DNA from: Spongospora subterranea
Lineage: Eukaryota; Endomyxa; Phytomyxea; Plasmodiophorida; Plasmodiophoridae
Reading direction: 5' to 3'
Assembly (NCBI GenBank): GCA_900404475.1
Contig: OUQQ01000011.1
Span: 1 to 64,000 of the forward strand
Length of the DNA stretch: 64,000 nt
Within the stretch, counting starts at the first letter, position 1, and every line of letters begins with the position of its first letter. Positions 13,196 to 51,188 of the stretch are shown here, piece after piece. A program made the position numbers and the translations under genes. A model generated the notes under the pieces. It was not told where the DNA came from, did not search any database, and worked only from the letters and a program-made list of their open reading frames with translations.

Positions 13196-13389
13196 TCATC
13201 CTCGCTCTGTCCATATTCGAACCCAAAGCATACCGACATTTGACTAAACTGCCTTATATGTCACTTTACCACAATATTTACCAACAGCAGCTGTTCTAAT
13301 CGCAGATAGTCACATTGCCTTCCAAGTCACCTTAGAACTGATAATTTCAGGAGGAGGTGTTTGTTGGCCCTGTTGATCCCCTGATAGTT
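13196..13389. promoter_or_regulatory. spacer upstream of DYRK, possible exon acceptor
   Basis: Short spacer between two plus-strand genes. A pyrimidine-rich acceptor (ataatttcag) ends at 13350 and the frame stays open from there to the first ATG at 13390. The kinase may therefore have an extra 5' exon or a 5'-UTR intron. Confidence 0.35.
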
Positions 13390-15310: not shown

Positions 15311-16930
15311 TTATTCATTTACAGGATAAGATGGTTTTGATCCATCGGATTTTTCATCACTAGTTGATGTAGAGAGATCTGTCCGAACAGCAGCTTGTTT
15401 CTGGAGCGGAAGTGACTTTTTTCTCAGTTTCCTGAACTTTTTGAGTTCATCCCTGCGTTCTTTGGCGAAGTCTGCCACGTCCTCATCATCATCATCTGTG
15501 GACGATATCGGTTTCTTTCTGTTGAAGGAAAGACGCTGGGCGATGTCCAGCGACGGAGGGGCTTCCAGCGGGATTTCGTCATCAGAGGAATCGGACGATA
15601 TATCGTCGCGAATCGTGGCGGTACGTTCCAGCTTCGGCATTGCTGGCGTTCTCGGGATGCTCGTCCGTATTGCTGGAAGCCTGTTTGCTGCAACTGCCGG
15701 AGGCAGGTAGGGAAGCGGAAAAGTCTCGACAGGGATCGCATCTGGCAATTGCGGTGCCGCCGCTGACAGGGCGGTCAGAACAGTTTCTGGTTCAACCGCC
15801 TGATCGCTAGGCATTTGCTTTGCAGCTTCTGAGAGCTCAATTCTCCCTGAATCGTCTTTCGTGGGGGTTTCATCAGGTGCTGAAGCTGCCGCCGTGGTTG
15901 GCGAACCCTGAAATGTCACCCCAAATTAACGTTCGTTGAATGTGCGATCTCAATTGCTTTTTTACCGAAATTTGTTCGTTCATCACAGACTGGATATTGG
16001 CTAGTTTTTGTTGTGGGGCAGGCATATGCGCGACATCTGGACGGGCGATACCGCGAGTAATGCAGCTCCGACAACGAGTTTGAAATTTCTGCATCGCATG
16101 TGGGTTAACAACACTTGAGCATCAAACGTTTACCGGCCCGAACCTGATTTTGCTGGAAGTACATGCGCCATTTCTCGTTGGTATTGGTGCCCGACAAGAA
16201 CTCAGGGTTCGCGCTCAACCGATCGAACGCGTCGACGATCTCGATAAAGGGGATCATAAATTCAACCGTAAGATTCTGAGTGGAAGAGCATTGTTCACAC
16301 GACCCTGGCGAGAACGGGAGGGACGGTTCAATGCCGGGTGATAGAACTGAACAGAGCCGAACTTCCAGATACCTTTGCGCTGAGAATACGTCGTTGCCGC
16401 AACCAGCAAACGGAGCTTGATATGGCGACGCGCTTTCTGAAGCCACCAAGCACTGATCTGATTCGCCGCTTCTGATCTGTCACCGAGATACACCTGACAG
16501 GAACAACACATTTAGAAACGGGGACATCTAACCCCTTTAGATCCAGCTAGCCTCTTCTTTCTTCTCCACTTCAGATTTCGCTCCTTCGCTATCTGACGAC
16601 ACATCGTTGACGTTGTCGAAATGCCCTTCGGCTTGCTGGCGAATGAGCGATTCGTACTGATCAATAAGGTATGGACGATTTCGTTCAATCGCTCTGTGAA
16701 ACCCGACAAGTGTGAGCGAAGCCGGTTTTTCGGCCATCAAAGCAGAATGATCTCCCACCTTGGCGTGAGAACCGTTGATAAATGATGCAGCAACCAAAGC
16801 TTGTTGTGTTTCAGGAACTTCAATCGAACAGCGTCGCTCGTGATATTCTCACGGATTTCAAACTTCTCCTCGTACTCGCTCAGCTCCGAGACGGCGTCCT
16901 CTTCATCATCCTCCTTCTTCGGCAAATACC
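15311..16930 (-). other. cytosolic tail of the giant protein
   Basis: Starts with LPKKEDDEEDAVSE, continues through helical segments (LKFLKHNKLWLLHHL, ISAWWLQKARRHIKLRLLV), then a CEQC and RCRSC cysteine pair region, and ends in a Ser/Asp-rich then Lys/Arg-rich tail (ISSDSSDDEIPLE, FRKLRKKSL). Acidic serine clusters would suit casein kinase 2. At least five exons are involved, with introns of 50-70 nt. The cysteine pairs could bind zinc (inference). Confidence 0.5.
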
Positions 16931-19900
16931 ACAGCTACAAACAAAAAAAAAAACGCTTAAACCATCTGAGCCGACGTTCGGAAAACGCTTTATTACCTGA
17001 GCCCAGTCGGCGAGCATTTGAAACAGTTCCCTGAAGATCATGCACGAGAACGCTGTAAATCCAACCACAACGGGGACGGCTATGTCTGAGAAAAGCGAAT
17101 AGCTCTGTCGCAGCATGATTGTCACACCTGATCAATGGCCCAATTAGCGAACCCCGACCCAATATTGACAACCGATCCATGCTCAGACCGAATATGAACG
17201 CGATGATCCCGAACGCGTGGAATCCGGAGATGAAGTAGAACTGCGACGAGAAACACAGCAGATCGAGCTTTTGAAGATCGGGCATCAGTGTCGTATCTAG
17301 TTCCAGATCATCCGGTTTCCAGCGCTGTTTCCGTATTCGAAATCGATATCTTCACAGAGAAACATTGATGAAAACTGCAGATCCACGTGGTGCACCCCCG
17401 AATTACCTGGCGAACTCTGCGTAATCATAGACTGGCCAAGTGTGGAACAGCTCCTGAAGGTTCAGCAAGACGACATCAATCCCTAGAGAGAATCGTGAGC
17501 GGGAACCCCTTTGGGAAATGTTTCCACGACGACGGTAACGAACCGAATTGCCATCCGATGATGACCACCGAGAACAGGAGGTAGACCAGCAGATCGCTCG
17601 ACCTGATCGAGTAGTTGGCCGGGATCTGGGTCTCTTTGTTGAACAGAACGACGAGGAACAGGGTGATCGGGGATAGGACCAGCCCGATGGTATCATTAGC
17701 GTAGACCAGGAACGCATCCATCATGGGCTCGATGGTTTGCGAATCGAGCTCCTCTTGAAGGAGATGTGCCTAATTCGAAACGTTCACGATCGGCGCTCTA
17801 TTCGGTGGTGTCAAGCCCGAGCTACCTTCTTCTCAATGATTGAGGCGGCCGCCTCCTTGCCCTCCGTCCGCAAGGTTCGCGCCTGCCAGCGCGCCCTCAA
17901 AATCGGTAGTTTTTCAGAAAAGTATTTCATGAACGGATTCAAATATACGCGCTCTCCAGCCTGAAATGCCTTCGGTTAGCGTCGCTACTTTTACAGAGCT
18001 TGGAACCGACCAGAAACGCAAGATCGACCGCATATGACAGAACAAAACTGAAAAGATCGGCGGCGCCAACCGTGACGACGAATTGAGTTATCATTATGCT
18101 GACCTAAAACATAAGGTTAGCGATGAAACCAATCGTCTGGCAATAGATATTGGCAAACCATCAACGGTGACACCATTGTGGCGTCTTCAATCACCCCATT
18201 CAACAACGACTCGACGAGCATCGTCACAACTGTATGTTTTGTTAACGATGAGCGAACAGGAGAACTGCACCATGATGGCGCGAGCAACACACCTTTCAGC
18301 ACCATGATGAAGGCGAAGGTGTTGTTCGAGAACACCGAGGTGTATGAGAACTCCAAAATATACAGAAGGAAACAGCCAGTCAAGAGCGAACACAGAACGA
18401 GCTGGATTCGACGCCAGGTCACCGGACTCCAGAGTTCGGACGGTCTGGGATGGCGATCCGACAGTTTCGAGACCATGAGCCGCGACCCTTTGACGACAAG
18501 TTCAATTGTGGTTTTGTGATTGATCGCCGGCAATGGCAATATTCACACCTTGAATCAGAATACAGAACGCGAACGTGATTAGACTGACTCCAAGGCGACC
18601 GATTTTGTAGTTCAGAGCCGTTGCGTCGCTTAAATCGGTCAGATCTTGGTAATTGCCGACGATCACGCCAAAAGGGTATATCAGGGAGAACAAGCAGTAT
18701 CTGTGGGCAGCATCAGGAACCGGCTAAACCGAGAGAGCGGACCGGTATTACATGAATCCAGATATCGTGACGATCGGAACAAGAATGCAGAAACCCCCGA
18801 GAAAAGGGGACGGGATTACGATCTCGAAATACGGAAAGAACCTGAAAGGCGGCGGGGATCGAACTGTGGACAGTGATCGAACGATGAGGAACAGAACGCA
18901 GACCGATAGGAACGCCATCAATCCCACGAAACAGAACAGAACCGTGTACAGCTCCAACCCGAACGAGAACGAGTTCATCAACTCGGACCAATCTGTCGCA
19001 ACGGTCATTGAGGCGCATCCTGTGAACGGGGTGCGTTGGGCGTTTTACTGAGTGGAGTCCACGTAATGTGTAGCTCGTAGGGTTGGCGCCAGTTCACACT
19101 CTTGTTGTTGCTCATGACTTGCTCCACTACGGAAGATGGAACCTAACGGGGGTCCGATAAGCCAGGGCGATGACAAACACGAGGAACAAAAAACAATACC
19201 TCAATCCAATCTTGGAAGGTGATCGACGCCGATACCAGGCGACGCAGAACCGAAGTCTGCTGGAAGTATTGCAGATCGATGGAGACGTGGCCCGGGATAT
19301 ATAGCAGATCAGAAACGGGACGATCAGATTGGACAATCACTGGAACCAACGAATCCGATCCGATCAGTTTCTGGTAATACGCGTAGCCCTGGAAGTAGTT
19401 CTCATTTGGCTGAGGATCTGCACGAATGTCGTCAGTACGATGACGTCGTTTTCACGAGTGTTGGTTGTTGTTTTGAAACCCGACCTCGTGTCAAGTAAAA
19501 CAGGGTGCTCCCCGAATCAACCTCAAACCAGCGAACTCGAGGACGAATGATGCGCAACTCCTCTTCGATCTCGCAGGTCGTCACAAAATCACAGGAATCG
19601 CTGACGCCGGTGATGCCCACGTCGAAGCTGCCAACCGGGACGATGGTCGCTGGTTGGTCGCAGGAGTTCGGGTCGGATGTGGCGAATTCCACGGGAATGT
19701 GCGATGAGAACCTGGTTGGCCACGTCGTAGTCAACAAACGAATGTTGATCCGAAGCGAATCGGCAGCAAACGCATACCGTTTACACAGCGAAATAAAGGG
19801 AAAATAGTGCAACGGAATGAGTACACGATCGGAGCTGCCCTGAAACCCGGTCTCCCAGTACGCCGCATTCTCGGTGATCGTCGAAATGGCGTCCCGTTGC

Positions 19901-22900
19901 TGGTCAACGTTAGGGTACGTCTGATTCAGGCCGACGTCGATGTAGACCTCCGTGTTGTTCGTATTCGGAAGATTGAGCGGCAGTTCAAGTTGGAGTGAGT
20001 CAAATGTCGTCTGAACCAGTTCTCGTCAGCGACATTCCAGATACCGACGTCAGATTACCTTTTCGATCATTGCATAGAACGCATAATCAAACGACTTGAA
20101 GGCGACCCCCATATTCGACCTGGTGGGTCGGAAATTCGTCACCGTTGTCGTGTTCAGAAACATGGACATATCGTCAATGAAAAACCCGTTGAATAACTGT
20201 CATATTGTCAAATTCTGTTATGGGAAATTTGAAGAAGGGTACCTCAATTCTAACAGTGACATCGATTGGTCGCACAGCATATAGCCAAACATCAAAAGCA
20301 ATTTGTTTCAACCGATCTGTATCGTTCCAGAACCAACTCGGAAGCGTCACTGCTTCCGGGCGGCCATTGATTCGAATAGAGAGGGTAAAATGATCGTTGA
20401 AGTATATCCTAGGACATCGCGTGAGTGATTGAGAGCACAAACTACAGTACAGAATGAAATGACGGTGATTACTGAGGCTTGTGAGTCCAGTCCATTCGTA
20501 ATTGGGCCATTTCCAATGGCTCCACATGGATTATGTCCTCTCCCACCACCGGATTGACCGACGAGATAATCTGGCAAAACCGTAATTCCTTGCAGTCTTT
20601 GTAGCATTGGTATATGGAGATGGCGCCGGCGTCCGAGGTTGTCCCAACTACAGCGGTCAAATTTTGATTTTACACACGTTCTGGGCGCATTCACACAAGT
20701 TTCCTTACGCGGGCATCTGAACTGGGAACCAAGCAACGATGGCGGCATGATGACCCCGGGTGGACAGTAGTATCCCTTCTCACAAGGGAACTGCTTGTAG
20801 CTTTCGTCCGACGTCATGTTGAAACAAAAGTACCCAGCGGGACAGATGTGGTCGAATTGTGAGGCAGGGGTTGTACCTGGCAAAGATTTTGTGTGTGTCA
20901 GCGAAAACTTGATAATGTTGGGGAGATGGGTGATGATACCGGCAGGACAGAAATACCCGCCCGGGCAAGGAAACTCTTGGGACATGGCTTGTGTTGTCCC
21001 ATTTGGGCAAACTTGGCCAGGGGGACAAAGCAGGTTCAGGTCCGTTTGCGGTTTCGTTTTACGCCCTGATGCGTTCGAGATTTAGAATGTAATTTTCTGA
21101 AGGGGCTTGGTCGACATCACCTTCAGTTCCACAAACCCAGCCAGCATCGCAGATGTAGCAATCGTCTACGCTGGTTCGTCCCGAACGATCTCCATAACGT
21201 CCTTCAGGGCATGACATGCAGAACCTATTAAAGATGACGGTAAATGAATGTCGATTTAATGGATACCTTGGTCCATCCCACCTCTGTTTTAATGAATCGC
21301 CCCTGTACGTTCCCTGACAAGAAAAATCAAAATTCTGGGACTTTATGGCGTCGGTAGCCTTACAGGTGGGCAAATTGCTGGAATTACAGTTGCCTCTTTT
21401 TCACAAGAGTAACCGGCTGGGCAGGTCCAGCACCCAAACGCATCATCGACATCGGAGAAGAACCCAGGAGGGCAGACAACGGGTTCGATAACGCCGTCAA
21501 TACGGGAATATTGCCCAACTTTCAACAAAAAACAAAACATGAGTGCGTCCCAGGTCATCGAGCCAGAAAACATGTTTACATCCAGCGACGATAGGAACGA
21601 TGGTCCCCTCTGGACAGTAATATCCTCGAGGACATATGGCCGTTCCTGTTGGAGAACAGCTCCCTTGTTGACAGTAGTACCCTGATATCGCTGAGTTAGA
21701 TTGTTGTGTTTGATGGCGACCGATGGGGGAACAGTCTAGACCTTCTGGGCAAATTTGAGGGGTGCTGTAGTTCCATAATTGGTGAACCGGTGTTGCAGTT
21801 CCTTCTACACAGAAGTATCCTGCAGGGCAGGGCACGGGTTGCTGCAGCAATGAAGGCCCAGGAAGGGCGACCGTTCCTATATTTATGATGAGGTGTCAAT
21901 TACGCCCCCAAGTATTGCGCGAGGAAGGGAAGAGACCAGAGGGACAATAATAACAAGGAGGACAGCGTCGAGGAGGAGCAGCGAGCCTCAAACTATCGCA
22001 CACATATCCTGCCGGGCACTCCAAAGGTTGGCTTGCGGAAAGGGGGCATATCTGCCATGGATGAGCATTGGAAACATCGGCAATGACCTCGAAGCTCACC
22101 TTTCCGAACGGACAATATCGGCACATCGATTGGCCAGACATGTTGTTGTAGGTTCCACGTAAACAGGGAATCGGGTACACATTGCCGACACCTTTGTTGG
22201 GTAAATATTCAGGAGATGACAGTGATTCCAAAAAACAACAGGACAATACCGGGACAGAATGTGCCAGGTGGACACGGAATGGGAATTGCATCTGGGCAGT
22301 ACGATCCGGTAGGACAGGCACCATCACCTACGTCAACCCCAGGTCGGTTCATAGATTTTAGAACGACCAGGTGGGAAAATAACCTTCTTTTGTTCGTGAT
22401 CCAAGTGGGCACCAAAACCCAGGTCGGCAAACCAACGGCACGTTCGAAATCGACCCCGATCTTTTAAGATACGAGTTTCCGTCTACAGATAACCCACCTC
22501 CATATGTGATGTTGGGGGTTGCCTTCAAAACCATAAGCTTGGACATTTTGATAACCCGGGAAAGGCGATTACCACTGCGATGCCCTCGGTACAATAAAAT
22601 CCAGGGAGACAAGGAATCGGATAAGTTGTCACACGATGGGCGTGCGTGTCGGTGATCTCCCACAGATCCAACGAGGAATTAATGAGGTTTCGGCCAACTG
22701 CATAGGCGACGTGAATCTTGCCTTCGTCAGAAACTGTACTGAAGTGAGTAACAAAAGTGGCAGCGAACAATCTCTCAGACCAGGATGATCTGATAGAATG
22801 CGCTCATCCAGATATTCAAGCCCGTAAGACCAAGCATCAGACGCGGCGTCAATGATCACCGACACCGATGACCCGTCAGATATCCAAATTAGGGAACCTG

Positions 22901-25900
22901 AGGCTACTGAACCGTTGGGAAATACCCCTAGACTCAGAATTAGCGATTGCCAGATACGATGCCGACCAATGGTGTATACCTTGAGACAAGAATACCATAT
23001 ATCGTCCATATAATGAGGTTATAAACTTGGCCGATTGACCCAGTGTCCCGACTGGGGTGTCTATAACGCCATTTGTTGCATGTAGAGTCGACGAGACTTG
23101 AAAGTACAGAGTTCCTCGGAATATACATAAATAAACCGGCTGAGACATGAATGAATGCACTACGCTGGCGCTAGATAAACCGTCAGTCCTCATGAGCTGC
23201 AAACCCCTGAATTGCAAATTTAGGAGAGAAAATGACGAAGGGCAAAAAGCCCTACGAAGAGAAGTAGGAAAATCCTTTGTAGTTGGTCCAGTAAACGGTG
23301 GAGGGCAATGGCAACGGGAGAGAGTACAGAAATACGAGAAACGACGGGCGACTGGAGATTGACCACAATCCGAACGATGCCCCATCGAATGCGGTGAAGA
23401 TCACCCTGTCCGGTGCGATCCCCGTCCAAAGGGAGATTTGGCTTCCGCCGGTCGGGTTGATATCGGACAATTGGGTTTGAACCGTGTCGTTGTAGGAATA
23501 CAATTCAGTGCCGTTCTGATCATCCCAGTCCAGTTTGACATTGACACCTAGACAAGAAGACAGTGAAACTCTCGTCTTGATTGAAGTTAGGGTTCAAATA
23601 CCGTTGATGGTGGCAGATAAATTCGAGTAGAACTCGACTCCATTTTCAAAATACACGCGTTGCTGACGAAACCCTTGCGACATGCTCGCACCGAACCGTG
23701 CCGACGATAACGCGTCATCGCGTCGTAAAATCTGCATTCAAACGTATGAGAATTCGAATACTTACAAGCAAATAACAATTCCAACCCTGATGTTGGTACT
23801 CGTCCCGGGAGGACACCAATATCCAGAAGGACAAAGTTCGATAGGACGGTCGAGATTTTGATTTGAACAAACAAAACCTACAAAAGTGAACAGCAGGAAC
23901 CGAAGAGAGCATAGACTGTACCTGCTGTGCATATCGTAGGGATGGAATTACCGAATCCGGGACAAAACGTTCCGCGAGGGCATGGGCTGCAGTGGACCGC
24001 TCCTTTCGCCGATGAGAATGTACCAGGAGGGCATTCGTTCGGTGAAAGCTGGCCAAGAGAAGAACAATACGATCCAATGGGGCAAGGGATCTGAACACCT
24101 GGCCAGTTGCCGGTATAATTGCCACGGTTTGAAAGCTATATACACAATGTTAATCTCATTTTCAGTATCAAATATTGATCAGCACATATCCATAACCTGA
24201 ATCGAGAAGGTCTGGGAGCTCGTAGCCCATTGAAATCCTCCATCGTTTGACACCGACACGTTGTAATCGCCCATTAGGAGATCCAATGGGGCAATGCAAA
24301 CAATTTGTGAAACTGAAATGAAGCTGCAGATTGGACTGTCCACTATTTGATCGCCTTGCAACGTCGAAGTTGATAACTGAGTGAAGCGGATTTTGATAGC
24401 CGTGACAAACCCAGCTCCGTTGATCGTTATCGACACACCGGGCAGACCTAGAACGAACAACATTCAAAATGAACTTGACGATCAATGTGCGATTCTACCT
24501 GAAATTGGGAAAATCGATGTTATAACTGGAGAGATCGACGCTATCAAAGAAGCAGGCATCGATGTCCAAGTGTTGCCCCCATTTTGAGATACGGAAAGTT
24601 GGGTGGCACCTGGCGATAATACTGGGGTGACACAAGACAAACTGGAATTTGACTATGATATGATGCCGTCAGAAAATGCTGATTCAAATCTGTACCAAAC
24701 ATACCAAGAACTTGGCTGGAACAACGGTATTTCCGAACTTGCAGCGAAGCAAACTGGTTTGAACAAAAAAGTCTCCGAAAACTTCAACCGTTGTTCCACC
24801 AGAAACAGGGACGATCTTGGGAAACACAGATCGAAGAGTTACAGCATAAATCTGTGACAAAGCAATATGGTCAAAGAGACGGGCCGGCGAATCGTTTCGA
24901 AAGCAGACCTCGATTGATAGAAGTGACTCAGAGAACTGCTGAAGATTGTACGATAGTTCAACGATGCATGTGCCTGGCGATATCGGTGGAAGAGCAGCGC
25001 ACCTCACTTGATTAGCAGACACGAAGGACGCGGCAACCACAGTGGTTTGGCAGAATCTGCATTGAAGAAATGAATGATTTTGGAACCCAGATCCGGAAAC
25101 GACGATAGTTTCTCCCCCAGAGGACGACGCTATTCGCGGGGATAGAGAAACCATAGAATGTCGCGCCGCGTATGCGAATGAATGATTACTGCCGGGAACG
25201 TCATCGTTCAAATTAAGTTTGAGCGAGACACTTGTATTTCCAGCTAAATTGCCACACGATGTTAGGTTTTTTCACACCTAGGAATTGTGCTGCATACCGG
25301 GATGGGCAGGACTGTCACAATGGATTTGTGTCGACGAGATGAAAACGGGATCAACGAAAATACCGCCGAAACTGCATATGGTTGTCGATAGATTCATGAA
25401 ACTGACCCCTGAGAACGTAATTGTTGTTCCACCCGTTTCGGGACCAATTAATGGAGTGACAGAAGTAACGGACGCTGCCGCATGGTAAAAAAAGGTAGAA
25501 TTGCCACTTAGGTCGAGACCTATGTGAATGCTCAGTCGGGCAAAATGCAAAAACTTGAATGGCAAACCGTTGTTGCTTAGGTAAAACGGGACACGTCCCG
25601 GAACTCCTAGATATGCTGGGGCGATACATTCAGCCACGCCAGGAGAGAGATACGTCGCTACCGTGCTGAGGTTCGGCCCGAAAAAGCAACTGAGCGAGGT
25701 GGAGTTCTCGAATCCGGAGCCCAATGAACGAACGAGCGTACCCCCTGACCCGGAACCCAGATTTGGCGAAATGGAGCGAACTTGAAACCCATTATTCGTT
25801 TGCGGGTTGCTCTGGGACGAATTGGCACCACCGGCGCTAACTGTATATCTGAATAGAATGGCGATGTCTGACCAATCTGCTCCGTTATTATCGGACACGC

Positions 25901-31900: not shown

Positions 31901-34900
31901 GAAATGACACTTCTGAGAAGTCGGTGTCATTCCAGAAGCAGCCAGATATGACGTCGGCAGAAAATTCAGATCCGAATATGGTAACTTGTCTTGAGCTTTG
32001 TGGCCATGCTAGAGCAGTCGCTGATTGTGGACGAACGGACGATATTCTAGGCTGGTGGATAACATTTATGGGTGCTCGACCAACGAGCCCAGACCCTTCC
32101 AGGACGTCCAAATAACGGATTCCGACACTGATGGGTGTAACAACCCCGGAAACATCGCAAACAACTTCAGAAGGAGAATGCCATTGAGCGACAAAACTAG
32201 CCGACAGCCCTAGGCGGCACGTTCGAGCCGCATTCGGGAATTCAGATAGAATGCCAATCGGGAAAACAACCAGCACCTTCGTATCGGCCTGATCGAAGAT
32301 CACGTTAGGAATCGCTGTAGTGTTTGTATAATTTTGATAGGTTGTAACAGGGGACGTGACGTTGGATGTCACATAAGTCAACGTCGTGGGTTGACTGGTC
32401 GACATAACGAATACGCCATCGATGGTAACGGTAACGATAGTGGATGTAACACCGATTGGTACAGGAGCTGGGCTGGCACACGATATGGACGTACTTGTTT
32501 CGATTTGTGCTGGTGTTCTGTGAAAGCCACTGAACCAGCACCATGCGATCGTTCCATCGCGAATGGGAAACCGGCTTCCTGATAGGGTGATGGTTATTGG
32601 GGAGGAGCCTGGCGCGAGAACAGGGGAGATTGCAGTAATGAGAGGAGGTATGACCAGGGTGATCGCAGACGATGACATCGCCCAATGAAGGCACCCTGCT
32701 GCCCTGACACCAACCCGAACATGCTCCTCGTTGATCAGATGAGATGGGACTGGCACAGACAGTTCATCCCTGGAGATATGGGTTATGTTCGATAAAATTT
32801 GTGCGACGTCGCCAATGAACAGGCGATCCACAATATCCAATGCGGTTCCTTTGACGGTAAGAACACTCGTGGATGAAGAAAAATACAGTTCGGTGATAGA
32901 TGGATATGAAGATATATATTTAAATTGAACTCCATCGTCAATACTCGCCGAACCGTTTGATACGACGCTAACGCCAATAATGCCAGAAGAAGGTAGAGAC
33001 ATAATTCTTGGAATGGCGCAGAATAGCCATGTGCTCGAAATACATAATTCTGGCCAACTTTCGATTGCCTCCGTCGACGAAAAAACTCTGCATAACGTCC
33101 TGCCACATACAATATTAGCGGCGGTGACGTTGATAATAGCACCTTGAACTCCAGAAGAAGGAAACACCGAAATTACGGTAGGTAATGGATATGCTGAAAT
33201 CGTCCATGGTGGAGACAAAACCGGGACAATAAACCCATTCCCTGTTTTCAGAGTGAACACGTGCGTTCCAGCAAGTAAACTCGGTGTCCCTATCACGAAG
33301 CAATCAGTGTCAAGTTTGATAACGAAATTATGTGCGACTTACTGAAGGTAAAAAATGTTGGATGAACGTTTTCAGCGAATACAGCTACTGGAGCACCCGA
33401 TGACGCAAATTCGGCACGAATACCATCGCAAAGAAGAAAATTGGATCCGAACACGGTTATTATCGAATTTCCATAGATCGAAGAATGCTGTGGATCAAAA
33501 GACGTGGCCGATGGACTGGCCAAAACAGTGACCAATCCAGCCAGAACGAAATTGGAAGCGGAATCAGACGAAAACTCAACTGACACCGGGCCGGGCACAT
33601 ACTGATGAGCGTTGAATGCCACTGATAACATCGTTGGAGAAATGGATGACGCCTCGACAATTTCGTACCCTCCAAAACGGAATTTTCCAATTGTAGCCGA
33701 TGAAGTAAAGTTCCGCCTCGTCCCACCTGGAACAGGAACTGACAAAAGTGTTGTCGAGAAGTTTGCGTCAAAGGCGTGTCTGGTCCAAGTAGATAAAACT
33801 AGAGGGACTGTCTGACCACCGTCAACGTACGAAATGCGAGTTCTAGCGGAATCCGAGCGAAATCCGGCGTTGACGTCCCCGACATCAATAGCGCCTTCCA
33901 AGCTGTACGAGTAATCAGGAGCGAGACACGTCATCGTGAAGGCGGAGACCACAGAGCATGAGAGTAACATTGTCTCGTTGTCGGTAATTAGCCGAGCTAT
34001 GGTGCTAATTGAGAGAAACCTATCAGATCATGATGTTAATCCTACGGTTGGACAAGTGAAGTTCGCAGTGACCTTGAACCAGTTATCGTCAATTCAGTAA
34101 AAGAGCCGGAATTCGTTGGAATCAATAACGGCGCAACGCCCGTTATCAATGGCATATCCGTTATATCGAACACGGAACCTGAATTCACAATCGACCAATC
34201 ACTGCCATTGTTGACACTGATTTCGATCGAAATATTGAAAGCCGATGGCGCATGGTCCGGTACTGGACATCGAACGACATCGGGTGAAGTGAAATGCGCT
34301 TGACGAATGTGCCCAAAACCGAATCGGCAAAGTGAATTTGGCCTGAAACCGGATCCGTACACGTAAATACTAGCGTTAGAGCCAACAAACACTCGATTTG
34401 GCAAAACTCTGGCAACGGCACAAATTTCCACAATCTCAATCGGGACCGAGAATAATCCCCATGACAATCCTGAATCCACGCTCAAGCTGACAATCGGCTT
34501 CGCGGGCGAGAGCGATAAAATAGTTATAGGAACAATGCATTCAACAAGATAATCAGTTGCAGACGCTGCACTGATGGTAGACAGCCCAAAGCGGCAAAGT
34601 ACTTCCTCTAACTGAACATTGGCAAACACTCCTACGATTGTAATACGAGTAGTGCCCGCTATGACAATAGAGGGCGTTATAGAAGTGATTACAGGCGGTT
34701 CAAAGATCTGTGGTAATGATGAAAATTATGAAGAAACAAAGTAAAAGGCACATACGTTAAGCGCCCTGGAAGGACGCGACGCATCAGAGTCAGGGATGCA
34801 ATTCGGCATCACACGCACCGACACCACCGAGTTGAAACGAGCAGGAGACGAGCATAATAATGATGAGTTGGACAGGAATACGGAAGGAGGGAAGCGATCG

Positions 34901-37900
34901 CCATCAAATGCGCAACAAGACGAAGCGGTGAAGTTGCTACCAACAACAGTGATGGTTATGGGCGAAGAGGCTGGAAAACGGCTTGGTTCTATGGACGTTA
35001 GTCCGATGTCTTCAACGACGCTGAACTGAACCCGACTTGAGGCAGATGGAAACCCGATCGCAACTGAAAGAGCTGGGTTCGCCCTATCAAGAGCCGGGCT
35101 TCGACATGTTGCCAGAGTGGAAGATATCAGAGTTGAAGGAGTTTGCACGCCATTGGTACCGAAGAAGCAATCATCGCCCGGTTTGAATCCCGCACCAAAC
35201 AAAGTCAGAACATGGTTACCGTCGAGAGAATCGATTGCGGAAGGTTCGATTGAATTGACAGCAGGTGGCGCGTCCAGATAAGTAAACAGCGACGCGCTCC
35301 TGATATAATCAACACTGTTGAAAGAAACACTGATGTAAACAGTAGATTGATCAGAAGGGTTTGAAGGTACACGGCATTGCATCAGATTTGGGGATAGTAT
35401 GGTGGCAGACGATGTTATTAATCCAAACATGCACAGCGCACCACGATCCGAGAACGCAACTCCAGATACATTAACTGTATCTCCAACGATTCCAAATTTC
35501 GGGTCAATACCGGTGATGGCAATTAATTTTGACAGATAACTGAAAGCGAATCCATCAGTGCTGTTGGACACCTCGACAGAATTTGGAGAAATGTTATCGG
35601 AAGGAGAGGAGCAAAGTAGCTCATCCGGAGAAACCAGTCCCAATGATAAGGAATCGGATGTGAGAAACGAACATGTCTGGCCAGCCTGAAGGTCGACGCC
35701 AGTGACCGTGATAATGGAGCCATTTATGCACGAAGAAGGCTGTATTGAGGAAATAGTTACCGGTGGCGGTGACGAAGGAAACGTTCCTACGACAAAATAA
35801 GAAAACATAAATGGGTGTTTTAACGTTTTTTTTATACATACCGGCATATAATGATAAAGATTCTGTTTCGAGAGCAACGACTTGTGATTCTGACGACGTG
35901 AGTACCTCTAGTGATATTCCGCATACAACAGCAACATCTGATATGGCAACCGCTATGTGCCTAGATATCTGTCCGATGCGACAAAACCATGAATCAGACG
36001 AGGCTAAGAAATTCGCTCCATAAATAGTGATATCAGAGGCCCATGGAAACTGAGCAGGATTGAGTATTCGAGGGAGCGAGCGTATTTTCACGATTTCAGA
36101 CGAATTGGTAAAGTCGACCCCATTATTTGACAATCTTACGAAGACTGCGTCTGGAAGGCTTTCTGAAGACATGTCGCATAATGCAGAATCCGATGAGACC
36201 CAAACCGCCGAAACAGGAGCATGAATCCCGATTTGGCAGCTATTTTTTGTGATAATCAGAGAATATAATGTTGCAACCTTCCAACTGTTTACCTGAAAAA
36301 GTCGCTCGGAAGAAATCCCGCTCCATGAACCTCAATGATGGACGATCCCAAGCAGTTCGTCGCCGACAGCACGATCAGGTCGGTGTACACGTAGAACGTT
36401 AAAGGCTCGGAATATGACGTTCCATCGACAGAAACTTCAAGAGAGGCACTTCCCTCATGATGAAAAGGAGGCGAAGAACAGGATGCGGATTTCCCATTTT
36501 GAAGCACTTTGGCAGCAGTTATTACAGAAAAGTTCCAGCGACATTCCATGACGTCTTGAACGAAACCTTCGCCAACCAAACTAACAGCAGTATTTCCTGA
36601 AGACGGAACATACATTGGACTCATACCTTGAAGTGAGATTGCAGGCAAGTACACAAGGCTATATTGAGTCCTGCCTAAGTATTGACCATTTGCTGATACT
36701 TCCAGTGGAACCACACCAGAACCAAAAGACGCATCAAATATAGGAGAAAGACAAGCAACTTTGGACACATTTCCGTTGCTGATATTTGCAGCTTGGATCA
36801 TTGTCGCAGGAGAACTCAAAAGCTCTCCGAACCTATCGAAGAATTTGAATAAATCCATCGATCATATGTCGCATACACACCTGCACGACAATTCTGAGGT
36901 ATTCAAAAATCTTCCAGAAACAGTTATCATTCTTCCGCCCTGATATCCGCTATAAATCGGAGAGATTCCGGTAACTACTGAAGATGAATATTGGAACAAA
37001 ACCGAAGAAGATGAAAAATCAAGCCCATTATCGGAAACATCAACGATAACTCTGTCAGAGACTGAAGACGGTGCAGAGCAGATTATTTGTGCCGATGAAA
37101 GGAATGTTGCCGGCACAATCTGAATAATTGTCTTCAGACAAGAACAAAACGAAACAGTCTCATTCTACCTGAGTGCCGAATCGACACCTAAGGCCAAAGC
37201 TATCGCGAAAATTGCTTCCAGTAATGGCAACGATTGTTCCGTTGATACCGTTATCTGGGAAAATTGATGCAACCACAGGTGCAACATGGTACTCATATTC
37301 AACAGCGGTTTGCGAGAGAACCGAATGATTTGCCAGGGCACAGCGGATCTGAGTCAGGCCTACTGAAGATGGCGGCGATACCACAGTGAGACTCTGGTCT
37401 GAAATCACAACGGCAGGTGCAGTGATATCTAATGTATGGTTAAAATCGGATGAAATTAAAGTGGGTAAACACCGACTTGGAAGTGAGAAATGTACAACCA
37501 TTCCAGCTATAAAACCTTGTCCGAAAACACTCAAAGTCGTGCCCCCTAGGGACGATCCGAAAGGAGGAAAAACACTTGTCGCAAAGAAAGGGAGAGAAAA
37601 GTTGATTGCGATTGGAGTGAAAAAGTCGTGGCCATTTGAACTGATATCCACGATAGTGTACTTGGTCGTTCCCATAGGCGCTTGACACACTGCTTGTGTG
37701 GAAGTAATGGTTCCTGATAACGCCGCAACCTAAATCATTTTAAGCACAAGGAGGATTGACTGCTATTCAGTAAGCACCTTGATTTGTGAGCCAAAACCGT
37801 CTTGAAACCGACACCACAATTGGTTTGTTAAAAAATTGGTTCCTACAATTGTCGTTGAGGATCCCCCAGAAGGATGAAGGGCTAATCCTGCAACGACGGC

Positions 37901-40900
37901 ATTCGTCATCGAAGGTTGGGCGATAAACTCGAATGTCGAAGAAGTATTGGCAAATTCTAAACCGTTTATCGCAACGCTAACTTGAACGATGCCAGGTGCA
38001 TGAGAAGGAGCGAGACACATGATTTCAAACGAACTGATGAAAATTGCAGACGCGGAACTGAGGCTATTTCAAAATACGATGAGAAAAACATTGAATCAGT
38101 ACTCACCTCAATACCGAGCCAAATTTGCAGATGAGCGTGTCTCTGTTGACGAAGTTGGATCCCGATAAAGTCACCCAAGAAACACCAGCGTAACCCGTAG
38201 AAGGGAAGCTGGCTTGATCCAACGAGACAAGATCATAGAAGGTAACGGATAGTCCAGATGATGAAAAATCCACGCTGTTAAATGACACTTCAACGCTGTA
38301 TTGACCAGGAAAACTAACATAGGGGGTTGGACATGCAAGGCGACTGCCTGACAGGAAAACAGCCTGGGTCGTGAGCGACTGTGAGGTTGTACTAAAATGA
38401 CACGTTTTGACAGATTCATTCACAAAGTTAGATCCGAATAATGTTAACACTGTGCCCCCAGTGTATGAAGCAACAACTTCCGGGATTATCAAACTTATGC
38501 TCGAATCCAAAAACGACCGAAAAATGGCAACAGGCGACCATTGAAGGCCATTGCAAGTAACTTGAACAGCAGTAACTGTAGAGTTCATAGACGGAGTAAC
38601 GCAGCTAACGTAACTGGAATTGACATAAACTGCAGCAATCTTGGCAGAATCGAACCGGCAGAACAGGCTTGACGTATTGCGCAAACCTAATGTATGGATG
38701 GCGACTGGTGTTCCTCCTGATGCTGGACCCGCTTCTGGAGACAAAGAGACAATGGCAGGGTCATGATAATAGGTGAAGTTGACGCTGCTACTTGAGAAAT
38801 CAACTGCGTTTGAAGACAGGTCAACATTTACCGATCCTGAAACTGCAGTGGAAGGGACAACGCATATCGCAGTAGTTGTATTTACAAACGTATACAGTTG
38901 AGTAATGGCTTGACCAATTCGACACACAGCTGGTGCTGAGATAACTGATGGATCGGAAAACCCGACCCCACTAACTGTCACGGAATATCCACCAGCGATC
39001 CCTCCATGGTCGGGAGATACTTTCTGCACAACAATATCTGGAAAATATTGAAAAGTACGTAAGTTTGAAGAAAAATCGACCCCGTTTGTGCTGGCTTCAA
39101 CGATGGTCGCTTGTAATTTGCTTCCGGATAGCGCAGGAACTGAAACTAATAACCGCGTAGAGGAGATAAACTCAGTTTGAACTAACAAACTCCCAAAACG
39201 AAGCACGGTGCGTGGCCGGAACCCTGATCCGAAAACGGTGACGGGAAATGGGCTTCCGGAAGAAGGTTTGCCATAAGGAAAAAAATCATATATCTCCGGA
39301 AGATATGAATAGGTAAAGGAACAAGGAGGTCCTGCCTGAGAGATATCCGATCCATTGTTAACTGAAACTTTCACGTTCACAACTCGAGACGGCAGTCCTC
39401 CCGGCGTTTCACACAGTACCATCGACTGATTCTGCACAAAGGCGGGCACCAACACGTTCTCAAACACACATGATGTAACAGAGTTCAACTGAGTGCCGAC
39501 AACGGCGACCATTGTTCCTCCAAAAAAACTGCCATGATCTGGTGAGACGTAGGTGATAGAAGGCACGGCTACATAAGAAAAATTCTGATTTTGTGAGGTG
39601 AACTCTTGACCGCCGTTATCGCTGATTTCCACCGAAACAATCCCAGGCGCAAAAGAAGATGGGCTGACGCATGTTATCAACGAACTGCTTATCCACGTAG
39701 AATTAGACTCTGAAGATAGCAAGCCAAATCTGCACTGAATAGGAAAAAGCGACGTGAAGTTCGACCCAAATATTGAAACTTGAGTACCTCCAGACGTAGG
39801 ACCAACTGCTGGATATATGCGAGAAACTACTGGTGGTGCCGTAAAGTAGTACTCAATTGAGCCAGAAACATAATCGAGTCCGTTCAAGGTGACATCTATG
39901 TCTTGTGAATCGGGAAACGACGACGTTATAGCAGGGGAAAGGCAGCGGATCAATGTGGATGACAAGTATATTGCTGCGGTAGAAAGCAATGATCCACCGT
40001 AGCGACAGGCTAAAGTTGAAGACGGATAAAAGAAACTACCGGTGATATTTACCCAAGAAGAACGGCCGTTGGCAGGAGCAGAGACAGGGCTGGCAGATAG
40101 TATAATGGGAACTTCTGAATAAACGAACGTGATCCCTAAACCTGTGTAGTCATAACCACCATTATTGGATAATTTCACTGACACAGCCCCTGGGCTGCTC
40201 ATCGATGGCGTGATGCATGAAACTGATGTACTCGTCATGAAGACTGCAAAGACTTCGGGACCTTCAGCTCCAAATTTGCACCAAAGCTCAATATCGGAGC
40301 TAGTGTTGGAAAATGATCCGGGGACAGCAACATCGATCTTGATTAGGGTTCCACCGTAAATACTTCCATTGTTCGGAACAATGGACTCATACACTAGGGG
40401 TGGCATGTAAGTGAAATTAACTGGACTAGCGAAAAAATCAAGATAGTTGTCAGTAATAGAAACCGCAACAGATCCTGCAGCCGACGGCGGCGAAACACAT
40501 GACAGCATGTCAGCTGAAATCCAAACAGCATCCACGGTCGTTCCCCCAAAATTGCATAAACTTCCGCCAGTTGACGCTGAAAAATTGAATCCCGTCACTG
40601 TCACAATGGTGCCTCCAGCGACAGGTCCACGAATCGGATAAATCGAGGACACCGACGGGCCTATAGCGACGTAATTGAAGTAAAGATTGTCGTGCGACCA
40701 GTTTTCCCCTAAGTTGCTACTAATGGTAACTGGATAAAGACCGGGAGCATTTTGGAAAGGAGCTACGCATGTTAAGTTGGTTGACCAAATCGTGTCCGGT
40801 ATCACGATAGAATGTCCAAAGCGACAACGCGATGTCGAAGATTTAAAACCATTTCCATAGACTGTGATTCGCAAACCAGCAGTCCCAAATTCCGGAATCA

Positions 40901-43900
40901 AAGTGGAAATGTTTACAGGGTAAGTGAACCTAAACAGAGATTTGTCGCCATCGAAAATCTTTCGGCAATCTATCAACTTCTATAGATGTAACAAAATTTT
41001 TGAAATTACCTGACCGTCACTAGAGATCGTAACATTCACATAGCCTGGATGAGGAACCTTAGGAGTTCGGCATGAGACAACGGTGGAGTTGAGAAAATTT
41101 GCGCCCACAACCAAGGAAGTTGTATGGGACACGAACAAACACGAAAGCGTTGACACATTATGAAACGAAGTCCCTGACACAGTAATGTAGGCACCACCTA
41201 TATGGCGAGAAATTAGAACATGCAACCAGGATAGCGTAACCAAGAGACCTCTGATAGAGCCATGATCAATAGATAAGGCTGATATTGTTGAAGGATTATA
41301 AACCTGGAAGGGTACATTTGTCGTTTGATAAAGTCCAATATACCCATTCGAAAATCTAAAATTGAATGTAGCGTTGCTGAAGTGAACAGGGACAGTACAT
41401 CGAACAACACCAGAGGACTCATACCTATGTGCGAACAAAAATCACTGTCAAAGAGAGGGACCAATGCGTTAATACGTTGCTGCCGAAGAGATGCCTGGCG
41501 CGAAACCACATTGTAAAAGCGGGGTGTCCCTGAATCCCCTTCCTGATATAGTAATAGTGGTACCACCAGTAACGGGGGCGCACGACGGATTAACACTGGA
41601 CACAACTGCATCTGTAAATGCTTGAACCTAAACGAGAAATGTTTTCAAACCCGCAGCAGAGAGCCAGGGCCTCATACCTGTTGACTGTTATGCGTTGTCC
41701 AGTATCTCAGATTCGTCAACTCTAAGGCGTATGTTCCATCAGCCTATTAAGCGATCAGTAGAAACCGGAAGACGTCCAGGCAGAATACGGGAGGGATTGG
41801 AGAAACGCAACGTGCTTCGCCGCTCGAAATAATGGTTGCATTGGTTAAATATCCACCAGAAAGCTTGCAATAAATCGGAGTCCGAGATGACGTGACAAAG
41901 TTGGTCCCAGTCAAGGTCAGGTTGACGCCACCAGTGAGTGGAAACACGTTAGGTTCAATATTACTAATTAGAGCAGCAGCAAGATAATCATACTGAGCAC
42001 CTGAATACGCTTTTCGTAAAAAAAGTATGCATTGTAGAAGGGATTTTACCAGAAGAAGAATACTGATTGCTATTGATGGTCACTTCAACAGCAACCGAAC
42101 CTGCAGTAGATGAAGGGGCAATGCATATAATTTTGGACGAGTTCCAGAATGTTGCAGCCACGGGTGAGAGTTGATTACCAAAGATGCATCGAAGTAACGA
42201 CCCGCTCTGAAAGAAATTGCGTCCAAAAACAGTTACTACAGCCCCGCCTTCTACAGGCCCTTCCCGAGGATGAATCTGAGTGACCGCGATGTTTGGGTAG
42301 TAATCAAACCTTGCCGTTTGGTTTGAATAATCGACACCGTTATTAGTTACAGCAACGTGGGCATAACCTGGCGACAATTTAGGTGGAACTCTGCAATTAA
42401 TTGCTGTTGAAGAAAGATATGTCGCCGGAGTCGGCCACGTTGCATTGAACCATAAACAGGAAAGACTAGGATTATCAATAAACCCAGATCCAGTAATCGT
42501 AACGATCATGCCACCACGAACTTCCCCAAAAGAGGGAGAGACGGAAAGCACCGTTGACACTTCGCGATAAAAAAACTGGACCGCATTACTTGTGAGATTT
42601 GTACCGGAAAGATAAACTCTCGCCGAACTATTCATTGAGCCAGCTGGTGAAACACATAAAGCGGTTGTTGATGACTTCACCGTAGCTAAAGTGTTCAACC
42701 CGGATGACCAGATGCATCGAAATCCTTTTTGAAAATTCGATCCGTGCAACGTGATCGGCGTTCCACCTAGTGCACCACCGAACGCTGGGTCAACAAAGAA
42801 AAGGACTGCTTCTTGGCCCACGCTGAGATACAAATCGAACTGTTGGGTCCGCACCAATTTTCCAGCAAATTGGTACGGTCCATAACCTTCAAGCTTCCAG
42901 TTGATGATGTCGATTCCAGAAAAATATGGTACTCTGGAGTACACCACTTCCTTGATTGCCACATTGATATCAGAAACATTTCCACTGTAATTAGCAATGG
43001 TTGATGTGCTGTTGGGAAGCCGGTTGAGACCGTTGACCGTTTTCAAAGAGATTTGTCCCAAGTCAGCGCTTATGGAACATGTGATCATTTCCGCTCCCAT
43101 CTTGGAAGCGTTCAGTATTGCGTTAGAGAGAAACGACACGTTCATCGTCGGATACGCTTGTAAAGAAATATCATCGTAGACGTTGATAACGTCAACAACA
43201 AGTCCTGCAGACACTGAACTGTTTACCCCATCTGACACCCGATAATTAAACTCATCCTCGCCAGCAACTGAAGATGAAAATATGACTCGTCTATCGGAAT
43301 CAGTTAGGGTAGTGTTAGGTGACGAAATAATGCTTCCGCGCTGCCAGTTGACAGCAAACTGATACAGCACACCGTTTGTCGGTAATGACAAAATTTCAAC
43401 AGCAGTCAATGAACCTGTTCCATTCAAGACGATGATAACGTCCTGATTTCGATTTGTCACAACTCTAGTTCCGAATCCGCAAGTCGAGGGCACCCAACGC
43501 AAAGCTCCGGTAAAGGTTCCATCGTTGAAATTTCCAGATGAATCAGTGGCATCCATGCCATCAAAGTTCCATCTCAGAATAAGGTCGTCTGGAACCTGAG
43601 GGTCTGGGTATTTCATGGCAGTAACGATTTCTGACTCAGAAATTGCTCGCTCGTAGATCCGGAACTCGTCAATGGCGCCTGAAAAATTAAACAACCCAAT
43701 GGCGGATGTTCCGACATAGAGAGGGAGTCCTGACGAAGCTGCGTTGTAGTAGGATGATGGAGATATCTACACACAAACATCAGTACATTGATTATATCTG
43801 AAAAATATGCCTACTGAGCCTGTTGAAATTCCATTTTCATAGAGTACGAGCACTAAAAGGTTAACAGTGACTGCTACGTGCGTCCAATTAGATGCGCTGC

Positions 43901-44278
43901 CATTAAACAACAGTGATTCGTCGAAACCAGCTGCAAAAACACATGATTAAAGCCCGAGTACATTCAAACTGCTTTCTCACATTTCGGAAATCGGATGCGA
44001 ACTGATCTTCCAACAATGATGTCGATGCGCCATTCTCCTGGCTTTTCCGCCAATGTCATATTACCGGTTGAATTTGGACGCACCCAGGCGGCAACAGTAA
44101 ATTCTGATAGGCCAGCGACTTCCATGCAAGGGTGAACAAAATCGTCATTGCGATTACATGCTTCTGGAGATATAACCCCATATGAACCGTCAAGGAATAA
44201 AGCATAGCCTGCGGTCCCTGCTACAGGGTCTGAATATGCTGCTCGCCAGAGTACGGTGAAAATCGCAATGAAAATCAT
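15311..44278 (-). CDS. giant LamG/TIG-repeat/GCC2-GCC3 multi-pass membrane protein
   Basis: The minus-strand frames from 44278 down to 15311 are linked by GT-AG introns, and the domain logic never breaks, so I read one gene of about 29 kb with several dozen exons and roughly 8,500-9,000 residues. In order: signal peptide (MIFIAIFTVLWRAAYS), LamG-like domain, cadherin-like segment, a long array of IPT/TIG domains, GCC2/GCC3 cysteine modules, a luminal domain, about ten membrane spans, and an acidic/Ser-rich plus basic cytosolic tail. Junctions I checked include 44278-exon to LamG (GISTGS|ISPSS), 33970 region to the 6.9-kb exon, and HTFS|GTVNALA near 26430. TIG domains are immunoglobulin-like folds used in receptors such as plexins and fibrocystin-like proteins. 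A role as a surface adhesin or sensor is inference. Some exon edges are unresolved, and a split into two genes is possible. Confidence 0.65.
16930..20470 (-). other. luminal domain and multi-pass membrane region of the giant protein
   Basis: From 20470 to about 19140 the frames give a soluble, Asn/Asp-rich region (VEFATSDPNSCDQPATIVPVG and FDNMTVIQRVF mark it). Then come roughly ten hydrophobic stretches, for example LYTVLFCFVGLMAFLSVCVLF (near 18,900), IYPFGVIVGNYQDLTDLSD with a following span (18,690-18,550), TIGLVLSPITLFLVVLFN (near 17,660) and FISGFHAFGIIAFIFG (near 17,220). The motif DWSELMNSFSFGLELYT before the first span looks like a conserved family feature; I have a weak memory of it in protist GCC2/GCC3 proteins but can give no family name. 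It is not a recognisable 7TM GPCR, polycystin or TRP. Confidence 0.55.
20480..24140 (-). other. GCC2/GCC3 cysteine modules of the giant protein
   Basis: Two blocks carry the ephrin-receptor-like GCC2/GCC3 signature CPxGxYCPxG. Block one, about 24140-23760, has CPPGTFSSAKGA, CPRGTFCPGFG and CPSGYWCPPGT. Block two, about 22640-20690, has many copies, such as CPAGYFCVEGT, CPEGLDCSP, CPRGYYCPEGT and CPAGYVCD. Between them (23750-22640) lies a non-repetitive luminal-looking region with VQTQLSDINPTGG and SYGLEYLDERI. Exons are short and introns about 45-60 nt. These disulfide-rich modules normally sit next to the membrane in large receptors. Confidence 0.75.
24190..42840 (-). other. IPT/TIG repeat array of the giant protein
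   Basis: About 18.6 kb of sequence repeats one motif: a proline-rich start, GxxxGGTxVTVxGSxF, then C-x-F, a strand ending SxxxxxCxxP, and Vx(L/V)SxNGxDF. Each unit is about 85-100 residues, so by length the array holds some 55-65 TIG domains. I did not count them one by one. One uninterrupted exon (33296-26433) carries about 25 units and another (40976-38103) about ten; elsewhere exons are 200-1,700 nt. N-glycosylation sequons (NxS/T) are dense, as expected for an extracellular region. Most units keep a pair of cysteines. Confidence 0.85.
42840..43400 (-). other. cadherin-like (tandem VSDG) segment of the giant protein
   Basis: Follows the LamG domain in the same exon. The pattern SLPTNGVLYQ, then EDEFNYRVSDGVNSSVS, is that of cadherin-like repeats found in large adhesins. 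About two repeats fit, the second weakly. The first TIG domain begins just after (FVDPAFGGALGGTPITLHGSNF). Confidence 0.55.
43400..44278 (-). other. signal peptide and LamG-like domain of the giant protein
   Basis: The first exon codes a hydrophobic leader ending in a plausible cleavage site (AAYS), then a concanavalin-A/LamG-type beta sandwich: ALFLDGSYG, FTVAAWVRP and WRIDIIVG. The next exons give NWTHVAVTV, the VLYENG turn and IDEFRIYERAISESEI. These are the classic landmarks of Laminin_G_3-type domains. The domain spans three exons, with introns near 43,960-43,930 and 43,815-43,768. LamG domains usually bind glycans or proteins, so this N-terminus could be the ligand-contact end. Confidence 0.75.
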
Positions 44279-51041: not shown

Positions 51042-51188
51042 TGGCCAACGCCCGATGGCACGAGAGCCAATCTGACAACCTCACCACGCATTCCTTGATT
51101 CACTCAGATGGGTTTGACTCCCAAATATCGCCACCGGAAATTTTTGAACATCTCAATAATTTGTCAATAATCCTATGTTGATTGTTTT

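What the first reader, a model, noticed from the sequence alone, without database searches (positions are those of the whole stretch)
15311..44278. A single ~29-kb gene for a giant LamG-TIG-GCC2/GCC3 multi-pass membrane protein
Seen: consecutive minus-strand frames joined by GT-AG introns give, without a break in logic, a signal peptide, LamG, cadherin-like segment, dozens of TIG domains, GCC2/GCC3 modules, about ten membrane spans and a cytosolic tail. Known: TIG arrays occur in plexins and fibrocystin-like proteins, and GCC2/GCC3 in ephrin-receptor-like proteins. Inference: a polytopic protein with a TIG ectodomain well over 5,000 residues long could be a mechanosensor or adhesin on a wall-less zoospore. 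I know of no described function for this architecture.
Basis: partly seen in the sequence, partly recalled or inferred. Interest (0 to 1): 0.88.

Follow-up and report, generated by a model that had tools for sequence, protein, structure and literature searches.

The report
Giant eleven-span cell-surface protein family
The stretch encodes, by exon modelling and comparison with relatives, one huge (about 8,500-residue) surface protein, a very long chain of Ig-like beads on a stalk joined to eleven membrane spans, from a widely conserved protein family with no description found here that may let flagellated cells grip or feel their surroundings.

Summary
An exon model over 44278-15311 (minus) has 63 exons and 8,519 aa: signal-peptide-like start, LamG, a sub-threshold cadherin-like segment, 62 TIG units, a Cys-rich stalk, a ~430-aa juxtamembrane ectodomain, eleven (not ten) membrane spans and a cytosolic tail. 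No transcript was available; settings disagreed in detail. Strongest support: a profile of 48 relatives matches consecutive window exons in order, 20.2-16.1 kb.

The C-terminal ~1,150 aa define a family whose membrane part has no Pfam match over cut-off and no significant PDB match. 55 relatives were found; of 8 with organism labels, 7 are stramenopiles and one is a MAG labelled archaeon. Of 57 sequences, the 37 long enough to show it all have TIG plus Cys-rich repeats upstream. The genome holds a second such gene and a radial-spoke gene.

Best mechanism (inferred): a fibre-like tether or adhesion receptor whose 11-span base passes binding or tension inside. It may work like polycystin-1 or the mastigoneme complex, but membership is not shown.

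The parts
15311..44278 (-). whole gene model, 63 exons, 8,519 aa
   Evidence: exon chaining, homologue-guided; no transcript
44231..44278 (-). signal-peptide-like N-terminus (aa 1-16)
   Evidence: read from the model; no predictor run
43626..43895 (-). LamG-like (Laminin_G_3) best stretch, crosses one intron
   Evidence: Pfam PF13385 E 4.8e-16; coordinates worked out by hand from the model
43200..43322 (-). cadherin/Ig-like segment (Big_9), below cut-off
   Evidence: Pfam PF17963 E 0.02, 16.2 bits against cut-off 23.6; coordinates worked out by hand from the model
24221..42794 (-). array of 62 TIG units (aa 442-6242)
   Evidence: reversed control 0
20698..24135 (-). Cys-rich stalk with Ephrin_rec_like (GCC2/GCC3) repeats (aa 6251-7146)
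   Evidence: PF07699 4 stretches, 13 CPxGxxC motifs, coordinates
18952..20546 (-). conserved juxtamembrane ectodomain (aa 7181-7606)
   Evidence: 57-sequence alignment with near-invariant Cys, Asp and Trp, coordinates
17021..18951 (-). eleven predicted membrane spans (aa 7607-8078)
   Evidence: hydropathy averaged over 57 sequences, coordinates
17241..17462 (-). highly conserved cytosolic loop, span 9 to span 10 (RF..R...W ... CFSSQ)
   Evidence: R7991, R7995 and W7999 in 55 of 55, S8023 and Q8025 in 56 of 56 sequences with a residue there, coordinates
15314..17020 (-). cytosolic tail with LTPR motif (16769-16693, crosses an intron) and CxxC...CxxC pair (16299-16288, 16073-16062)
   Evidence: by pattern, CxxC pair in 36 of 57 and LTPR-like in 47 of 57

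Best explanation
This is one gene for a giant cell-surface protein of a widely conserved family for which I found no description: TIG array, Cys-rich stalk, conserved juxtamembrane ectodomain, N-outside 11-span domain, and a tail with a conserved motif block and a CxxC pair. Most likely mechanism: the ectodomain is a very long flexible fibre (62 Ig-like beads; a few hundred nm if extended, inferred) with a lectin-like LamG tip that binds glycans on a surface, a partner cell or other hairs. The Cys-rich stalk pairs or clusters molecules, as its counterpart does in Chlamydomonas MST1. Pull or binding is carried through the juxtamembrane ectodomain to the 11-span domain, whose conserved span 9-10 loop and tail relay it inside, probably in the flagellar or plasma membrane of a swimming stage. 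Shown by computation: architecture, conservation, topology by hydropathy, a flagellum gene in the genome. Inferred: length, ligand, clustering, force transfer, flagellar location. My odds: single gene of this family 0.93; surface tether or adhesion receptor 0.6; force-sensing at the flagellum 0.3.
For: Family profile in order on window exons. The same order TIG, Cys-rich, C-term region in 37 of 37 sequences with more than 1,500 aa upstream, the window and C367 models included. 84 of 1,047 kept columns at 90% or more identity across 57 sequences, of which the window has the common residue at 69 (counted by hand). 11 spans, odd number, matching an N-out start and a tail inside. LamG and TIG domains. 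A profile of relatives (window not in it) matches the mastigoneme protein Mst1 in PDB at E 2.4e-14, in the Cys-rich part. In MST1 the Cys-rich domain makes the antiparallel dimer and follows nine Ig-like domains (PMC11015965, passages); MST3's PKD2-like membrane domain is proposed to tether the hair, and mechanosensation is suggested. Radial-spoke gene in the genome.
Against: No significant match of the membrane part to any solved structure. No localisation or expression data. LamG is not among the precomputed Pfam domains of any of the 55 relatives, many of them truncated, so the lectin tip is not shown to be a family trait. In PMC11015965 the function of the hairs is called unknown, an adhesion role in mating is called refuted, and the Ig-like domains of MST1 are said to be present only in two Chlamydomonas species and not to contribute much to filamentation, so the analogy rests on the Cys-rich part. 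One named relative, Aureococcus, is recalled as non-flagellated, which weakens a strict flagellar role. Positive-inside bias is modest: 22.8 K+R per 180 residues in inner loops against 7.2 per 83 in outer loops (sums of the loop figures).
Confidence: 0.5

Rival explanations
1. Adhesion or recognition receptor without force sensing: the TIG array and LamG bind a partner (prey, host surface, mate) and the 11-span part is mainly an anchor or ligand-gated signaller.
For: LamG and TIG are typical adhesion domains (role recalled). Sister genes C246 and C594 carry TIG and Cys-rich ectodomains on a different multi-span C-terminus, which suggests interchangeable sensors or anchors.
Against: The membrane part and tail are conserved over 57 sequences, more than a mere anchor needs.
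Confidence: 0.3
2. Structural flagellar hair protein like MST1/MST3: the ectodomain polymerises into a hair and the spans hold it in the flagellar membrane.
For: Mst1 is the only strong PDB match of the relatives' profile, in the Cys-rich part; same Ig-like then Cys-rich order; genome with a motile-flagellum gene.
Against: No proline run of five or more for a PPII helix in the model. Cys-rich repeats of this kind occur in unrelated proteins (recalled), so the match may be to the repeat type only. Ig-like domains are said to be found only in two Chlamydomonas MST1 proteins. The described oomycete mastigoneme proteins are other proteins (recalled).
Confidence: 0.2
3. Distant true member of a known ciliary family, meckelin (TMEM67) or polycystin-1.
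For: One of 22 members scanned, P0002, matches Pfam Meckelin at E 0.0037 over 79 residues. Eleven N-out spans after a giant Ig-like ectodomain recall polycystin-1 (recalled).
Against: The Meckelin score is below Pfam's cut-off (15.8 against 25 bits), was seen in 1 of 22, and not in the fragment of its close relative P0001 nor in the window C-term. The relatives' profile does not hit any chain named TMEM67 or polycystin in PDB at E up to 1. No PLAT, GPS, REJ or PKD_channel match in what was scanned.
Confidence: 0.1
4. Artefact: two or more neighbouring genes, or a decayed gene, chained by the exon model.
For: Some settings ended the gene early or split it. Tiny exons of 21 and 7 nt in the model are doubtful. 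A coding model trained outside the locus recovers only the last 906 aa.
Against: Homology in order along the exons, same fusion in 37 of 37 long sequences, a transcript-derived relative (P0047), a 61-nt gap between TIG and Cys-rich blocks, a single 2,301-aa open frame.
Confidence: 0.05

Closest known systems
Chlamydomonas mastigoneme proteins MST1 and MST3
   Same: Ig-like domains followed by a growth-factor-receptor-type Cys-rich domain (MST1); a membrane domain proposed to tether the fibre (MST3); passages read.
   Different: MST1 as described in the passages has Ig-like, Cys-rich and polyproline parts and no spans are mentioned. The window protein has 62 TIG units, 11 spans and no proline run of five or more. 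No PKD-type match was found.
Polycystin-1 (PKD1), recalled
   Same: Very long Ig-like ectodomain, 11 spans with N outside and C inside, cytosolic tail.
   Different: No PLAT, GPS/GAIN, REJ or PKD_channel domain found; TIG and Cys-rich repeats instead of PKD repeats; no profile match of the spans in PDB.
Fibrocystin/PKHDL1 and plexins (TIG-array proteins), recalled
   Same: Arrays of TIG domains in a large ectodomain.
   Different: Those have a single span and, respectively, G8/parallel beta-helix or sema/GAP domains; none seen in the parts scanned.
TIG/Cys-rich genes on C246 and C594 of the same genome
   Same: TIG array followed by Ephrin_rec_like repeats and a multi-span C-terminus.
   Different: Their membrane part is another family; C246 matches fungal TRP PF06011 at E 6.3e-5, below cut-off (C594 not scanned), and the window family profile does not hit either at E below 0.5.
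Meckelin (TMEM67)
   Same: Cys-rich ectodomain plus several spans (recalled); one weak Pfam match.
   Different: Sub-threshold and in 1 of 22 members; no TIG array in meckelin (recalled).

Membership tests
IPT/TIG-domain proteins (PF01833) | TIG domains above Pfam's cut-off | tested here: met
   304, 298 and 90 bits against cut-off 20.9 in three exons; 62 units
Ephrin_rec_like / GCC2_GCC3 (PF07699) | repeats above Pfam's cut-off | tested here: met
   23.5 against 23.1 bits, 4 stretches, so marginal; one search lists C305:22100-22171 over cut-off
Undescribed 11-span family defined here (P0001-P0055) | ordered match over ~1,100 positions of the C-terminal profile | tested here: met
   722 bits for the whole model, which was partly guided by this profile
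Polycystin-1 | PLAT domain between spans 1 and 2, and GPS/REJ in the ectodomain | tested here: not met
   Pfam at E up to 10 on the window C-term, at E up to 0.1 on six pieces of the window protein and at E up to 0.5 on 22 relatives
Polycystin-1 | eleven N-out spans | tested here: met
   hydropathy only
Mastigoneme MST1 | growth-factor-receptor-type Cys-rich domain after Ig-like domains | tested here: met
   relatives' profile, window not in it, E 2.4e-14; order in the model
Mastigoneme MST1 | polyproline helix region and no spans | tested here: not met
   no run of five or more P; 11 spans
Meckelin (PF09773) | Pfam match above cut-off | tested here: not met
   no match in the window C-term at E up to 10; 15.8 of 25 bits in 1 of 22 relatives
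TRP/PKD-type cation channels | TRP, PKD_channel or Ion_trans match, or PDB match of the spans | tested here: not met
   a structural relation without sequence signal cannot be excluded
Flagellar membrane proteins | location in the flagellum | not testable with these tools
   only a flagellum gene in the genome and mostly flagellated named relatives (recalled)
Fibrocystin/PKHDL1 | G8 and parallel beta-helix domains, single span | tested here: not met
   none in the six pieces scanned (N-term, three TIG exons, Cys-rich part, C-term; not the whole array); 11 spans

The most novel reading that the evidence does not exclude
A deeply conserved, so far unnamed class of eukaryotic mechanotransducers: the 11-span domain is a new channel- or receptor-type fold, gated or signalled through a fibre of up to about 60 Ig-like beads on the flagellar or cell surface. 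It would be an independent counterpart of polycystin-1, spread over stramenopiles and at least one chitin-synthase-bearing flagellate that lies outside their clade in the family tree.
Probability: 0.28. Interest if true: 0.87.

Novelty: new variant of a known kind. Interest (0 to 1): 0.62.

Why it matters
Giant multi-span surface proteins such as polycystin-1 are hard to place in evolution and their force-sensing role is disputed (recalled). A separate family with the same plan, kept in organisms with experimental systems such as Ectocarpus, would offer an independent test of whether 'long Ig-like fibre plus 11 spans' is a recurring design for sensing touch or flow. It also gives function hunters a concrete domain with no Pfam match over cut-off and no significant PDB match here: about 430 aa of juxtamembrane ectodomain, 11 spans and a tail with a CxxC pair.

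Tried and rejected
Rfam (gathering threshold) and tRNA scans of the window gave nothing. The exon script over-split when it retrained itself. Pfam scans of the membrane part gave nothing for the window at E up to 0.1 and one stray match below cut-off at E up to 10 (HCBP_related, E 0.08); relatives gave only stray weak matches there. I considered meckelin because of P0002 and dropped it as sub-threshold; the own genome gave no PF09773 match, but the control genomes gave none either. Fungal-specific transcription factor PF04082 gave no match, again with no positive control.

Organism: not settled. No LHC match, with the cyanobacterial control ringing. PF01644 chitin synthase: 11 matches. The protein of the best one is nearest in PDB to 7wjm/8k52 (363 bits), then 7xs6 (312) and 7stl (297), which I recall as Phytophthora sojae, S. 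cerevisiae and Candida. Alpha-tubulin is nearest to chains that I recall as animal. In the FastTree tree (unrooted) the window protein lies outside the clade that holds all seven named stramenopiles, on a long branch, grouped with P0047, P0048, P0052 and P0055 at support 0.914; the copy C367, there a truncated model, pairs with P0003 (0.857). No hit is labelled as a chytrid, but 2 of 3 and 6 of 7 hits carry no organism label, candidate lengths were limited to 0.55-1.75 of the query and few words are used, so absence is not shown. A chytrid-like fungus is my guess, not a result.

Literature: 8 answered searches listed no paper that I could recognise from title and abstract start as being on this architecture. 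I saw passages only of PMC3471859, PMC12223298, PMC13358043, PMC8204020, PMC11015965, PMC3251606, PMC12221091 and PMC10846610; none of these passages describes the family. IPT/TIG proteins are mentioned on a Phytophthora contig with viral genes and TIG in adhesion-type receptors of Salpingoeca rosetta. Subscription papers and preprints are mostly not in the library; supplements were not open to me.

Full report
What was checked. The window is contig C305, bases 1-64000, of an unnamed 20.6-Mb assembly of 679 contigs. Its minus strand between 44.3 and 15.3 kb holds a chain of open frames, the longest 2,301 aa. A script that chains exons by coding score, GT-AG sites and intron length, trained in part on ORFs of the locus, returned one gene with exactly the finding's ends in 2 of 3 settings without homologue guidance. 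Other settings ended early, over-split, or broke the gene at 18.5 kb. Trained only outside the locus it recovered only the last 906 aa. The final, homologue-guided model has 63 exons, 62 introns of 44-81 nt and 8,519 aa. It is a model, not a transcript. Exons 2 (21 nt) and 6 (7 nt) are doubtful.

Domains. Pfam gives LamG near the N-terminus, TIG in the four TIG-bearing pieces scanned, and four Ephrin_rec_like stretches at a marginal score in the Cys-rich part. The cadherin-like segment is sub-threshold and the C-terminal piece has no family at E up to 0.1. A profile built from the window's own TIG units counts 62 units between aa 442 and 6242, and none in the reversed protein.

Relatives. Three protein searches found 55 distinct relatives of the C-terminal region at E up to 0.001: 3 among 5,359 candidates, 46 among 4,614 and 7 among 7,473, with P0001 in two of them. 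Eight carry an organism label. Seven are stramenopiles: Ectocarpus, two Phytophthora, Pythium, Triparma, Aureococcus, Chrysophaeum (lineages looked up for one species of each genus). One is a MAG labelled archaeon that sits inside the stramenopile clade with P0011. Of the hits of a profile from the first 48 relatives to the window's frames below 22.6 kb, the 15 at E up to 0.1 lie in strict order from 20199 to 16141; weaker ones do not all do so. This shows homology and validates the exon chain there. With the window gene and its copy on C367 the set is 57. All 37 sequences with more than 1,500 aa before the region have both TIG and Cys-rich repeats. P0047, from a transcript assembly, has the same order in one ORF. 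The window protein is at most 29.5% identical to any relative over the kept columns, 27.3% to P0001.

Membrane part. Hydropathy averaged over the 57 sequences shows eleven spans. With a signal peptide this puts the N-terminus outside and the tail inside. Strongly conserved are the juxtamembrane ectodomain (C7382, D7444, C7452 and W7467 in 57 of 57), the cytosolic loop between spans 9 and 10 and the start of span 10. The tail has an LTPR-like motif in 47 of 57 and a CxxC pair in 36 of 57 by pattern; truncated sequences were not removed, and C367 was scored on a truncated model. Neither the window peptide nor the profile of 22 relatives matches a solved structure significantly in the membrane part; the best there is a Sec61 homologue at E 0.49. 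The only strong PDB match is Mst1 of the Chlamydomonas mastigoneme, in the Cys-rich part.

In the same genome. C367 carries a second gene of the same kind, modelled at 52583-27050 with 7,072 aa, 24% identical in the best local alignment of the C-terminal part. C246 and C594 carry TIG and Cys-rich ectodomains on another membrane family, for C246 TRP-like below cut-off. A radial-spoke protein gene matches in three stretches, profile positions 1-139, 220-388 and 396-487 of 493, two of them read through stops as expected across introns, so the organism makes, or made, motile flagella. There is no LHC match, and there are chitin synthase matches.

How it may work. In MST1 nine Ig-like domains precede a Cys-rich domain that pairs the molecules, and MST3's PKD2-like part is proposed to hold the hair in the membrane and link it to a channel; the function of the hairs is called unknown there (PMC11015965 passages). 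The window protein has an Ig-like array, a Cys-rich stalk and a membrane domain in one chain. I therefore favour a surface fibre that binds and passes tension or occupancy to an 11-span base. Fibre length, ligand, clustering, force transfer and flagellar location are all inferred. Polycystin-1 is the nearest analogue in plan (recalled), but its defining PLAT, GPS and REJ domains were looked for and not found, so it is not filed there.

Verdict. By the evidence here a real single gene, and a member of a conserved family for which I found no description. The function is open. The family and its lack of a Pfam or PDB match are the interesting part; the giant size alone is not, since relatives of 7,319 and 7,972 aa exist.

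Noticed in passing
G000:C367:52583-27050 (minus; loci L012, L018, L019): Second full-length gene of the same family; also has a CxxC...CxxC pair in the tail. Its N-terminus was not searched for LamG.
   Followed up: yes
G000:C246:14307-1873 and C594:18182-5915 (minus; L010, L020, L011, L017): TIG plus Ephrin_rec_like genes with a different multi-span C-terminus; C246 weakly TRP-like (PF06011).
   Followed up: partly
G000:C347:70006-78146 (minus) and C120:10598-10804 (plus): Ephrin_rec_like repeats without listed TIG matches; the 11-span family profile gave nothing at E below 0.5 in the stretches fetched.
   Followed up: partly
window 49884-51080 (minus): Single-frame mevalonate kinase, nearest in PDB to 1kvk/2r3v.
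   Followed up: partly
window 62597-63601 (plus): Rtt106-like/SSRP1-type histone-chaperone domains.
   Followed up: partly
window 9242-10066 (minus), 13345-14010 (plus), 2406-3446 (plus): RING-variant domain, protein-kinase fragment and leucine-rich repeats in neighbouring frames.
   Followed up: no
P0051 (7,319 aa): A relative labelled 'archaeon' in NCBI falls inside the stramenopile clade of the family tree: probably a mislabelled eukaryotic contig.
   Followed up: no
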